NCBI RefSeq assembly: GCF_001936335.1 | Contig: NZ_CP018888.1 | Location: 1,364,001-1,428,000, forward strand | Direction of reading: 5' to 3' | Origin: Amylolactobacillus amylophilus DSM 20533 = JCM 1125 | Lineage (GTDB): Bacteria; Bacillota; Bacilli; Lactobacillales; Lactobacillaceae | Length of the DNA: 64,000 nucleotides | Part shown: positions 11,245-22,006 of the stretch, piece by piece | Layout: each line of letters starts with the position of its first letter | Position numbering within the stretch: the first letter of the stretch is position 1 | Notes under the pieces: model-generated | Told to the model about the DNA's origin: nothing | What the model saw: the letters and a program-made list of their open reading frames with translations, nothing else | Database searches by the model: none | Made by a program: the position numbers and the translations under genes

Positions 11245-11625
11245 ATGGTTCAATCAATAAACACCAAAGTAGATTTAGTTGAAAAGGCGACATCCCATAC
11301 GGCAATTGCTGAATATGGCAAGATTATGATTGGTGATAAGGGATTCGAGTTCTTCAACGATAAGAACGTCCAGAAATACATTCAGATTCCGTGGGATGAA
11401 GTTGATCTAGTCATCGCTTCGATTCTGTTCAAGGGTAAATACATTCCTAGATACGCATTGAAGACGAAGAGTAGTGGTACATACAATTTCTCTTCAAAGG
11501 ACCCAAAGAAAGTGCTGCGTGCAATTCGCGAGTACATTCCAGCAGACCGAATCGTTCGTTCACTCAGCTTCTTTCAGGTGCTGAAGCGCGGTTTGAAGAA
11601 TATTTTCATGGGAAAAAGAAAGTAG
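11245..11625 (+). CDS. manO: ManO, DUF956 family regulator-like protein
   Basis: 126 residues of the DUF956 family, which is regularly found as the last gene of mannose PTS operons in lactic acid bacteria. The protein is small, basic at its C-terminus (RGLKNIFMGKRK) and lacks obvious membrane segments or a helix-turn-helix; its molecular role is not established. It lies 89 bp after manZ behind a terminator-like hairpin, so its level is probably lower than that of the PTS components. ATG at 11245 follows AAAAGGATAG. Its last four codons are the first bases of a 112-bp tandem repeat array. Confidence 0.85.
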   Translation: MVQSINTKVDLVEKATSHTAIAEYGKIMIGDKGFEFFNDKNVQKYIQIPWDEVDLVIASILFKGKYIPRYALKTKSSGTYNFSSKDPKKVLRAIREYIPADRIVRSLSFFQVLKRGLKNIFMGKRK

Positions 11626-11974
11626 TGACAAAAGATGGTTAGCTTCTGAGCACTTACGATGACACTAAAGCGTGGAACGCTTGAAGTGGCAAGTAAGGCG
11701 GAGGAAGTTATCTTTTGAAACACAGTTAAGAAAGTAGTGACAAAAGATGGTTAGCTTCTGAGCACTTACGATGACACTAAAGCGTGGAACGCTTGAAGTG
11801 GCAAGTAAGGCGGAGGAAGTTATCTTTTGAAACACAGTTAAGAAAGTAGTGGCAAAAGATGGTTAGCTTCTGAGCACTTACGATGACACTAAAGCGTGGA
11901 ACGCTTGAAGTGGCAAGTAAGGCGGAGGAAGTTATCTTTTGAAACACAGTTAAGAAAGTAGTGGCAAAAGATGG
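11616..11974 (+). repeat. Tandem array of a 112-bp structured repeat (3 full copies plus a fragment)
   Basis: Copies begin at 11616, 11728, 11840 and 11952 (the last broken off after about 23 bases), each 112 bp and nearly identical (one A/G variant separates copies 1-2 from 3-4). The first copy begins inside the last codons of manO, and each copy repeats those bases. Within a unit, CAAAAGAT (11629-11636) can pair with ATCTTTTG (11710-11717), AGCTTCT with a block ending GGAAGTT, CTTAC with GTAAG, CACT with AGTG, and AAGCGT with ACGCTT around a GGA loop, forming one long branched hairpin of 89 bases. No protein is encoded. The array fills the gap between manO and pgi. Confidence 0.95.
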
Positions 11975-12024
11975 TCAGGATCCACACTCTTAGCCGTTGA
12001 TTAGTCACGTCCGTTTCTTGCATT

Positions 12025-19295: not shown

Positions 19296-20309
19296 ATGAT
19301 TGAATATTTTGCCACACAGAATCTAATTGAAAAAATGGTGACGGCGCGGATTGTTCCGGGTGTGAACTACGCATTCATTAAGGGCCAACAGGTGTTCACA
19401 TCAACCGTGGGTTTCTCGACCTGGGTACCGGAAAATGTCCAACTGAGTCCATTTGCCCAGTATGATTTAGCCAGCCTCACCAAGGTTCTCGGCACCACCA
19501 CGGTCTTTCTTCAACTCTACGAGGAAGGACAACTCAACTTTTCTGAGCCGTTACAGCAGTTTATTCCGACGTTTAAGGACCACCGGGTACGGTTATCCCA
19601 CCTGTTGACGCACACGTCTGGTATTCGTGGCTACATCGAACACCGAGATGAATTGAGCGCACGGGAATTAATTGAGGCCATTATCAACTTACCCGTGACA
19701 GACGAATTTGACGAGAAGGTGCGCTATTCAGACACAAATTTCATTCTGCTCGGGTTAGTACTCGAGGTAATCTTCGATAAGCCGGTCTGGCAGGTGATTA
19801 CGGAGCAGGTGATTAGACCGATGCACTTGCAGGCTACCACATTTTACCCAGATAAAAAAAATAGTGTACCAACGACGATGCGAGAGGATGGTACGCTGAT
19901 TCAGGGTGTGGTCCATGACCCGAAGGCACAGGTTTTGAAGGAGCATTGCGGCTCAGCGGGATTGTTTAGCGACCTGAACGACCTAGTGGTGATGGCACAG
20001 GGATACTTGGGCTTGAACCGGGATATTTTACCGCTGCACCAAGAGACCGTTGCTGAGTTGTTCAAGCCTAAAACGCGGCCAACGATGGATTTTCGCAGTT
20101 GGGGTTTCGACATGGTCTTTGATCCAATCGACCAACACGCGATTATCCTGCATACTGGCTATACCGGCACCTTGGTTGTCTTTGACAGGCTAATGCGGAC
20201 CGGGATGATCCTGTTGACGAATCGGGTTCATCCAAGCGGTAACAATCAAATATTCATCACGGCGCGCCAGAAGATCATTGCGAGCTTCTTGGATGAAAAT
20301 AAGCGTTAA
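19296..20309 (+). CDS. Serine hydrolase of the beta-lactamase/PBP4* class
   Basis: 337 residues, no signal peptide visible, so probably cytoplasmic or membrane-associated. The class C serine motif SLTK is at residues 60-63 (S60 nucleophile, K63), YSDTN at about residue 149 is the Y-x-N-like second motif, and LHTGYTG near residue 285 is the third (HTG replacing KTG). The family includes peptidases, esterases and transesterases; substrate not predictable. ATG at 19296 follows AGAGG at 19280-19284. A strong hairpin follows the stop. Confidence 0.85.
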   Translation: MIEYFATQNLIEKMVTARIVPGVNYAFIKGQQVFTSTVGFSTWVPENVQLSPFAQYDLASLTKVLGTTTVFLQLYEEGQLNFSEPLQQFIPTFKDHRVRLSHLLTHTSGIRGYIEHRDELSARELIEAIINLPVTDEFDEKVRYSDTNFILLGLVLEVIFDKPVWQVITEQVIRPMHLQATTFYPDKKNSVPTTMREDGTLIQGVVHDPKAQVLKEHCGSAGLFSDLNDLVVMAQGYLGLNRDILPLHQETVAELFKPKTRPTMDFRSWGFDMVFDPIDQHAIILHTGYTGTLVVFDRLMRTGMILLTNRVHPSGNNQIFITARQKIIASFLDENKR

Positions 20310-20345
20310 AAAATGCAGCTTTCCAATTTGGAAAACTGCATTTTT
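20308..20345 (+). terminator. Terminator of the serine hydrolase gene
   Basis: AAAAATGCAG pairs with CTGCATTTTT, and TTCCAA with TTGGAA inside it. It ends in five T and may also serve in the opposite direction. Confidence 0.85.
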
Positions 20346-20354
20346 ACTTATCTT

Positions 20355-20647
20355 CAGCTGCGTGCGCTAGTACTCAAAAGCTAACCGTGGGTGTACACGC
20401 TCTGCTTTGAAACGCGTTAGCACCCACAACTTTTTCCGTCTAGCTTCTCAGCTCTCACACCACTGCGTGGCGTTTCAGCTGCGTGCGCTAGTACTCAAAA
20501 GCTAACCGTGGGTGTACACGCTCTGCTTTGAAACGCGTTAGCACCCACAACTTTTTCCGTCTAGCTTCTCAGCTCTCACACCACTGCGTGGCGTTTCAGC
20601 TGCGTGCGCTAGTACTCAAAAGCTAACCGTGGGTGTACACGCTCTGC
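20355..20647 (-). repeat. Tandem array of a 121-bp structured repeat after murT (2 full copies plus a fragment)
   Basis: Read in the direction of murT (minus), the array begins directly at the murT stop. Copies start, on the plus strand, at 20355 (partial), 20476 and 20597, with a period of 121 bp. Each full unit is closed by CACCCAC pairing with GTGGGTG (20542-20548 with 20629-20635; 20421-20427 with 20508-20514). Inside, on the minus strand, lie the blocks GGTTAGCTTTTGAGTAC and GACGGAAAAAGTT, of which AGCTTTT and AAAAGTT can pair. The same blocks occur in the manO array at 11616-11974. No coding capacity is seen. Confidence 0.93.
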
Positions 20648-22006
20648 TTATTCCATTCCGGCTGCAATCACCTTTTCATCAGCTAACTTCTTGCGTAAGG
20701 CGAGCATCGCCGTATACGTCGATAGGATGTAAACTTTCTTCGTTGGGGCCTTTTTCACAGTCTCTAAGACACTGTTAAGCGAGTCTGTCACCTGCATCTG
20801 CGCTGGGTCAAAACCAGCGACTTCCAGGCGCAAGGCCATATCGTGGAATCGTTCGCCCCCGACGATCACCTGCTTAATCTTTGTTCGCTCTAACAACTCG
20901 AAGTTGCCATCCCAGATCCAACTGGTATCGATGCCATCCGCATGTTGAGCGTTTAATAGGGCGACAAGGCTGAAGTCGTCCTCTTCCTCGTTTATCAGGT
21001 CGACGATTTCGTTCAGCCCAACTGGATTCTTCACCAAAATGAGGTTGATGTTGTGGCCATTATAAGTAATCAATTCCTGGCGTCCAAACAGACGTTGGCT
21101 GTTGCTGAGTGCCTGCATGATTTTGGCAGCGGGTACGTCGAACTCTCGCGCCACACTGTAGGCTGCAAGTGCATTATGGATATTATACTTACCACCGATC
21201 GGCATCGTAATTTCCTGGTGCTCAATCGCGAAGTTAATGGTATTTGGCGTGAGCTTGCCGATGTTTGTAACCTGGTGAGTTAACGCCGGCCGTTTGAAAC
21301 CGCAGTTGACACAGAAGTAGTCCCCCAGGTTAGCGTAGCTGAGTGCGTGGTAGTGGAGGATATGGTTGCAGACGGGGCATAAGACACCATCCGTGTTGGT
21401 CGGGGCCTTGAAATCAGCTGCCTGGTCAGCATCCTTAGTCGAAACACCGTAGTAACAAATGCGGTTTGGTAGCTCGCGAGAACTGAAGATGCTGGCGTCA
21501 CCGTTTGCAACCACCAGCGCATCAGGCGCGAGCTTAATCCCAGACACAATCTTGTCGTAGGTCGTATAAATCTCCCCGTAGCGGTCCATCTGGTCGCGGA
21601 AGAGGTTGGTCAACACGAAAGCCTTTGGTTGAACGATTGCCGTGATTAATGGCACGTTCGCTTCGTCAACCTCGAGTACGGCGATTCTTCTCTTCGTCGT
21701 CTTGACTTTTTTGTGGCTCAAGAACGCCGTTGTGATTCCTTGTACCATGTTCGAGCCCGAGGGGTTCGTTAAGACGTCATCATACTCCGTCCTTAGTGCT
21801 TCAACCAACAGACTAGTCGTCATCGTCTTCCCGTTCGTGCCCGTGACGATAATCAGTTCATAATCACGCGCCAAGTCGGCCAGGACGTTCTCGTCTATCT
21901 TCGTGGCCAAGACGCCGGGGTACGATGTGCCACCATTCCTGAATTTGTGGAGGTACCAGAAGGAACCTTTGCCCACCACTGTAGCAATTTTAGCTTTTAT
22001 TGTCAT
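20648..22006 (-). CDS. murT: Lipid II isoglutaminyl synthase, MurT subunit
   Basis: 452 residues. Mur-ligase type ATP site TGTNGKTMTTSLLVEAL is at residues 56-72. A four-cysteine insertion (CPVC ... CVNC, about residues 205-230) and a C-terminal DUF1727 domain are features of MurT. With the amidotransferase GatD it amidates D-Glu of lipid II to D-isoglutamine. Here no gatD follows: the next sequence is a tandem repeat array and then a convergent gene. ATG at 22006 is preceded by AAGGATGAGAG. It is divergent from tdk. Confidence 0.9.
   Translation of the reverse strand: MTIKAKIATVVGKGSFWYLHKFRNGGTSYPGVLATKIDENVLADLARDYELIIVTGTNGKTMTTSLLVEALRTEYDDVLTNPSGSNMVQGITTAFLSHKKVKTTKRRIAVLEVDEANVPLITAIVQPKAFVLTNLFRDQMDRYGEIYTTYDKIVSGIKLAPDALVVANGDASIFSSRELPNRICYYGVSTKDADQAADFKAPTNTDGVLCPVCNHILHYHALSYANLGDYFCVNCGFKRPALTHQVTNIGKLTPNTINFAIEHQEITMPIGGKYNIHNALAAYSVAREFDVPAAKIMQALSNSQRLFGRQELITYNGHNINLILVKNPVGLNEIVDLINEEEDDFSLVALLNAQHADGIDTSWIWDGNFELLERTKIKQVIVGGERFHDMALRLEVAGFDPAQMQVTDSLNSVLETVKKAPTKKVYILSTYTAMLALRKKLADEKVIAAGME

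What the first reader, a model, noticed from the sequence alone, without database searches (positions are those of the whole stretch)
20355..20647. A second array, after murT, shares the same conserved blocks with a covarying closing stem
Read in the murT direction, each 121-bp unit has GGTTAGCTTTTGAGTAC and GACGGAAAAAGTT; the manO unit has GGTTAGCTTCTGAGCAC and GGCGGAGGAAGTT. In both, AGCTTYT can pair with the purine-rich block ending AAGTT, and the flanking closing stem is complementary although its sequence is entirely different (CACCCAC/GTGGGTG against CAAAAGAT/ATCTTTTG). Both arrays start at a gene's stop codon, run in the gene's direction and end in a partial copy. Two independent loci with compensatory changes are strong evidence for a selected RNA (or single-stranded DNA) structure, perhaps a 3'-end stabiliser, a mobile REP-like element or a small-RNA source. 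I know of no named family with this pattern.
Basis: seen in the sequence. Interest (0 to 1): 0.82.

Follow-up and report, generated by a model that had tools for sequence, protein, structure and literature searches.

The report
Mobile structured repeats at stop codons
The repeats after murT belong to a large, apparently unnamed family of about 120-base mobile DNA pieces, found in lactic acid bacteria and relatives, whose letters change freely while one folded shape is kept and which settle mostly exactly at the stop codon of unrelated genes.

Summary
The murT array (20353-20649, 2.5 x 121 bp, identical copies) and the manO array share one fold. A covariance model built on 22 units finds it in 183 of 398 sampled Lactobacillaceae genomes, 20 of 40 genera, and more weakly across other Lactobacillales. 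One genome is estimated at about 135 copies; one 592-kb Latilactobacillus curvatus record holds 62. Of 33 base pairs, 25 show compensatory changes (96.5% paired; 35-51% when slid). G.U pairs outnumber A.C mismatches 274 to 30, so the fold belongs to the gene-sense strand. Units sit at stop codons in sense orientation (median -3 nt), often completing the stop (T|AG AGTG): 23 of 34 L. curvatus arrays lie within 10 nt of an annotated stop, against about 4% by chance. Orthologous stops hold different units, decayed remnants or nothing; the murT site is empty in the one congener held. Best reading: a non-autonomous mobile repeat whose fold serves its own spread, landing in 3'UTRs. RAYT transposase and reverse transcriptase are absent from most copy-rich genomes tested. 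The mover, and whether RNA or single-stranded DNA is active, are unknown. No Rfam or literature match was found.

The parts
20353..20649 (-). Array of 2.5 units of 121 bp after murT
   Evidence: TRF; two full units found by model R2 at 99.6 bits each
20528..20645 (-). Unit 1 (full); left end AGAGCG just after the murT stop, right end ACGCGTTTCAA
   Evidence: R2 match 1-118/118
20407..20524 (-). Unit 2 (full)
   Evidence: R2 match 1-118/118
20353..20403 (-). Partial third unit, cut in its apical part, followed by a terminator-like hairpin
   Evidence: TRF; sequence; weak R2 match 20296-20403, 18.2 bits
20629..20635 (-). Unit 1, outer helix P2, 5' strand CACCCAC
   Evidence: alignment to R2; covarying helix 1
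20542..20548 (-). Unit 1, outer helix P2, 3' strand GTGGGTG
20619..20624 (-). Unit 1, helix P3, 5' strand AGCTTT
   Evidence: helix 2, 100% of cells paired
20549..20554 (-). Unit 1, helix P3, 3' strand AAAGTT
20608..20612 (-). Unit 1, helix P4, 5' strand CTAGC
   Evidence: helix 3
20561..20565 (-). Unit 1, helix P4, 3' strand GCTAG
   Evidence: helix 3
20648..22006 (-). murT; its stop TAA is at 20650-20648
   Evidence: NCBIfam NF045635 E 5.9e-159; ORF
20308..20346 (.). Bidirectional terminator-like hairpin AAAAATGCAG...CTGCATTTTT between the array and the convergent gene
   Evidence: sequence
11616..11975 (+).
   Evidence: TRF; R2 units 11620-11730, 11732-11842, 11844-11954
11245..11625 (+).
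   Evidence: ORF; sequence; no NCBIfam match

Best explanation
Each 110-125-bp unit is a copy of a non-autonomous mobile repeat family of Lactobacillales. It carries no gene. Its sense strand folds into one long imperfect hairpin: outer ends AGAGTG...CACGTTT, a closing helix of freely varying sequence, a 4-nt bulge (usually GGTT), a helix AGCTTY/RAAGYT, a conserved internal loop TGAG.A/.CGGA, a helix CTARC/GYTAG and a variable apical hairpin. New copies arrive preferentially at, or a few bases after, the stop codon of unrelated genes in the gene's own orientation, and often supply the last letters of the stop codon; arrays grow by added units and by tandem duplication. They are therefore expected to be transcribed as 3'UTR. 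Shown: covariation, strand asymmetry, dispersal, stop-codon placement, presence/absence and decay at orthologous sites. Inferred: that the fold is kept because it is needed to spread (as RNA or single-stranded DNA) and that an unidentified protein acts in trans.
For: Covariation: 25/33 pairs with two-sided changes, 96.5% of cells paired versus 35-51% when slid, 0/500 shuffles. Strand: G.U 274 versus A.C 30 in 95 units. Spread: 183/398 Lactobacillaceae genomes, 20/40 genera; 76/295 genomes of the order sample, families f1, f2, f3, f5, f7, f9; 28 units in 400 kb of G115; 62 in a 592-kb L. curvatus record. Recent dispersal: 95-96% identical units at distant loci of G145. Gain/loss: rumA arrays A-B-C in G115 against A-C-D in G141, whose rumA is 97% identical, with empty sites in G188 and G165; empty ccpA, gltX and pepV sites and different unit sets at groL in sister species, with remnants at pepV (G026) and rpiA (G165); murT site empty in congener G001, and manO sites empty in seven relatives. 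Placement: 75 of 101 arrays with a sense gene upstream lie -20..+3 nt from its stop, against 2 of 72 in the mirror control; 23 of 34 within 10 nt of annotated stops, chance about 4%. Upstream genes share no function. Copies away from stops score as well as those at stops (p = 0.47).
Against: No mobilising enzyme identified; no target-site duplication or terminal repeat of a known IS recognised. No transposition was observed, only comparative gain and loss between species. Passive spread at insertion-tolerant sites does not by itself explain sense orientation and exact stop placement, so a host-level benefit remains possible.
Confidence: 0.75

Rival explanations
1. A host-serving 3'UTR RNA, for instance an mRNA 3'-end stabiliser or a ribosome-coupled termination element, kept by selection at each gene.
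For: Sense-strand fold, position right after the stop, sense terminators within 200 nt of 41/121 arrays against 6 and 12 in control stretches. The Efa and Ype repeats of other bacteria were suggested to stabilise mRNA (PMC1590033, unpublished data cited there).
Against: Not conserved at orthologous genes even within a genus; sites empty or decayed. Upstream genes unrelated. About a third of L. curvatus arrays lie elsewhere, several in divergent regions or antisense, with equally good folds.
Confidence: 0.2
2. REP/BIME-type elements moved by a REP-associated Y1 tyrosine transposase (RAYT).
For: Same life-style: mosaic arrays, intergenic, palindromic; GTAG REPs also often supply the TAG stop (PMC3733652).
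Against: No Y1_Tnp (PF01797) match in G000, G001 or G033, which are rich in copies, although the search finds it in other relatives. Units are about 120 bp, not 20-40 bp.
Confidence: 0.05
3. A retro-element of RNA type, copied by reverse transcription of the 3'UTR RNA.
For: Sense-strand fold and sense orientation after genes.
Against: No RVT_1 (PF00078) match in 8 of 10 genomes tested, including G000, G001, G033, G115, G141 and G085.
Confidence: 0.04
4. A MITE, the deleted remnant of a DDE-type insertion sequence, cross-mobilised by its transposase through terminal repeats.
For: Ends AAGAGTG/CACGTTT are imperfect inverted repeats; size fits MITEs; one plasmid copy lies near an IS30-type transposase gene.
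Against: No target duplication seen; much of the conserved sequence lies in the middle rather than at the ends; compensatory changes throughout are not expected of simple terminal repeats.
Confidence: 0.15

Closest known systems
REP/BIME elements with RAYT (enterobacteria, Pseudomonas)
   Same: High-copy intergenic palindromic units, mosaic arrays, next to coding regions, ends often supplying TAG stops (PMC3733652)
   Different: Unit 110-125 bp against 20-40 bp; sequence of the stems not conserved; no Y1 transposase in copy-rich genomes tested
EFAR / Efa-1 repeats of Enterococcus faecalis
   Same: Same order; 163 bp, structured, close to the 3' ends of genes (PMC1590033, PMC2267715)
   Different: R2 finds no unit in a 748-kb E. 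faecalis record; Efa-1 is described as two adjacent hairpins. The EFAR paper itself was not held, so sequences were not compared
YPAL, ERIC, NEMIS, RUP (small structured insertion elements)
   Same: Non-coding, transcribed, hairpin-forming, next to genes (PMC3733652)
   Different: Different bacteria; no homology tested; structure conserved without sequence across genera is not described for them in the papers read
STAXI motif (tandem structured repeats)
   Same: Tandem structured repeats for which single-stranded DNA was considered (PMC2864571)
   Different: Pseudoknots near DNA-binding protein genes; no Rfam match here

Membership tests
REP/BIME-RAYT | RAYT (Y1) transposase in genomes rich in the repeat | tested here: not met
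   PF01797 absent in G000, G001, G033
REP/BIME-RAYT | 20-40-bp palindrome with GTAG or CGTC tag | tested here: not met
   110-125-bp units starting AGAGTG
MITE | Target-site duplication | tested here: inconclusive
   No obvious duplication by eye around the loci printed; comparison with empty sites is between species, not strains
MITE | Terminal inverted repeats shared with an IS | not tested
   Short inverted ends exist; no IS-end library available
EFAR / Efa-1 | Homology to E. faecalis copies | tested here: inconclusive
   0 R2 matches in a 748-kb E. faecalis record, although short similarities to an array of G046 occur in Enterococcus plasmid records
Any Rfam 15 family | Covariance-model match | tested here: not met
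   No relevant match up to E = 1
Retro-element | Reverse transcriptase in the genome | tested here: not met
   PF00078 absent in 8 of 10 genomes

The most novel reading that the evidence does not exclude
A new class of mobile element that moves as a folded single strand (perhaps single-stranded DNA, given the recurrent GNA apical triloops) and is aimed at translation stop sites in the sense orientation by an enzyme not yet known, neither a RAYT nor a reverse transcriptase.
Probability: 0.2. Interest if true: 0.88.

Novelty: new variant of a known kind. Interest (0 to 1): 0.66.

Why it matters
If right, many lactic acid bacteria, including food species, carry a large and unannotated load of mobile repeats at gene ends: in one 46-kb L. 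curvatus stretch they make up about a quarter of the intergenic DNA. They would be added to the 3'UTRs of many genes, could alter expression in strain-specific ways, and would give a tractable case of an element under selection for shape rather than sequence. The stop-codon targeting and the missing mover are direct experimental questions.

Tried and rejected
RAYT association and reverse transcriptase association: absent in most copy-rich genomes tested. Rfam in three batches: chance matches only, plus tRNAs and a PyrR site. Presence in viral contigs and phages: none with the queries used. Plasmid neighbours as empty sites: mostly IS matches, uninformative. E. faecalis and E. raffinosus megaplasmid-size records with R2: none. 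Target-site motif: only an A-rich tract at -7 to -2. Ten literature searches found the kinds of element but not this family. A tiny conserved peptide in the unit was considered by eye and dropped because reading frames and stops vary between units.

Full report
OBSERVATION. The array after murT is real: 20353-20649, period 121, 2.5 copies, 100% identical, read on the - strand. It starts at the murT stop (TAA at 20650-20648) and its third copy is cut in the apical part, followed by a terminator-like hairpin shared with the convergent gene. The sister array is at 11616-11975. MurT is confirmed (NF045635, E 5.9e-159); the gene named manO has no NCBIfam match.

MORE THAN TWO LOCI. Motif GGTTAGCTTNTGAGNAC with at most one mismatch has 18 matches in the 1.61-Mb genome and none for the reversed control. 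RNAalifold gives 33 pairs, 25 with two-sided changes. Counted on that sequence-based alignment, 96.5% of cells are standard pairs, against 35-51% when the partner is slid by 1-3 columns; the covariation score is 0.642 against 0.242 shuffled, 0 of 500 shuffles reaching it. The structure came from the same alignment, so the percentage is somewhat flattered, but the gap is large. In 95 model-aligned units nearly every position of the closing helix uses all four Watson-Crick pair types.

STRAND. In those 95 units G.U pairs number 274 and A.C mismatches 30 (185 and 30 without G.U-dominated pairs). The folded strand is therefore the gene-sense strand. This holds for RNA and for single-stranded DNA, since G.T is the tolerated mismatch in DNA too (own knowledge). 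Of 195 units scored, 114 have an apical triloop and 83 of those are GNA. GNA triloops are known as exceptionally stable in DNA, not in RNA (own knowledge), so this is a hint towards single-stranded DNA; shared ancestry or a loop-binding protein could also explain it.

ANATOMY. Left end AAGAGTG, pairing imperfectly with the right end CACGTTT; closing helix of free sequence; 4-nt bulge GGTT and variants; helix AGCTTY/RAAGYT; conserved internal loop TGAG.A opposite .CGGA with one covarying pair inside (T-A or C-G) and a lone A; helix CTARC/GYTAG; variable hairpin. More distant members keep the outline while the sequence is replaced almost entirely, for example helices TAGCCCC/GGGGCTG.

DISTRIBUTION. 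Model R1 matches 183 of 398 Lactobacillaceae genomes and 20 of 40 genera; model R2 matches 76 of 295 genomes of an order sample, in six families, and one genus outside the order in a class sample. Counts per genome are capped in those searches. A spaced 400-kb sample of G115 holds 28 units, about 135 per genome. A 592-kb L. curvatus record holds 62. Copies also sit on plasmids of L. curvatus and Pediococcus damnosus, right after annotated genes. None was found in phages or viral contigs with the queries used. E-values from the models are rough by construction.

PLACEMENT. Of 125 non-redundant arrays, 101 have a sense gene on the left; in 75 its stop lies -20..+3 nt from the unit start (median -3; commonest +2, i.e. 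T|AG AGTG, where the element completes a TAG stop). Mirror control: an antisense stop close to the right end in 2 of 72. In the G115 sample, which was not chosen by score, 16 of 21 arrays start within about 15 nt of a sense stop. With deposited annotation, 23 of 34 L. curvatus arrays start within 10 nt of a stop (ccpA, rnhC, pepV, mutS, mutS2, gltX, groL, rpiA and others), against about 4% expected for a random intergenic site and strand. In one 46-kb stretch the arrays are 1954 of 7865 intergenic bases. The upstream genes have no common function. Arrays not at stops fold as well as the others (median 78.7 versus 82.25 bits, p = 0.47). A sense terminator follows within 200 nt in 41 of 121 arrays, against 6 and 12 in two control stretches.

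DYNAMICS. G145 has 95-96% identical units at loci hundreds of kilobases apart. After rumA in one genus, G115 has units A-B-C and G141, whose rumA is 97% identical, has A-C-D; G085 has other units; G188 and G165 have none. At groL five of six species are occupied by different unit sets or orders and one is empty; ccpA, gltX and pepV are occupied in L. curvatus and empty in several sisters; decayed remnants remain after pepV in G026 and after rpiA in G165. At several genes the stop is TAG where a unit is present and TAA where it is not, and the protein end is unchanged. For this window: the murT stop of congener G001 runs straight into a terminator, without a unit, and the manO stops of seven relatives have none. 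These comparisons support insertion, turnover and decay rather than long-term retention at a gene.

MECHANISM. The best-supported account is a non-autonomous mobile repeat. Compensatory evolution with no dependence on position suggests that the fold is needed for the element's own spread. A REP-type Y1 transposase is absent from G000, G001 and G033; reverse transcriptase is absent from 8 of 10 genomes. The enzyme, the active form (RNA or single-stranded DNA) and the reason for stop-codon targeting are open. An A-rich tract precedes the units, but no strict target motif was seen. A secondary effect on the upstream mRNA is likely from position alone but was not tested.

KNOWN KINDS. No Rfam 15 family matches. 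REP elements also supply TAG stops (PMC3733652), and Efa elements of E. faecalis lie near gene 3' ends (PMC1590033, PMC2267715), so the kind is known. The family fails the RAYT and size tests of REP, and R2 finds nothing in 748 kb of E. faecalis. The original EFAR paper was not available, so a distant kinship is not excluded. Only open-access papers were searched; an older description in a subscription journal is possible.

Noticed in passing
G000:C1 about 501600-501850 and 629200-632200 (L024, L008, L146): The same arrays contain units with a different core (GGTTAGTCCACG...GAGTGG and TTTAGACCACG...GAGTGGTTT) but the same outer architecture; only weakly matched by the models.
   Followed up: partly
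L103, L104, L105, L106, L109 (G145): These copies extend about 60 bp beyond the unit, ending in a terminator-like hairpin that repeats the closing-helix sequence TGACATAA, so an alternative pairing (a switch) is conceivable.
   Followed up: no
L311-L314 (family f17, genus g105, same class): Members in one genus outside Lactobacillales, some in tandem, with ends such as AAGGTGCG...CCCGTTTATC.
   Followed up: partly
L130 and L154: Convergent gene pairs carry one array each, on opposite strands, each right after its own gene's stop.
   Followed up: no
CP117684.1 200865-201119: An annotated hypothetical protein lies almost entirely on the opposite strand of an array and is probably spurious.
   Followed up: no
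CP117684.1 530689-530927: Array in inverted orientation whose right end overlaps the stop of a crcB gene.
   Followed up: no
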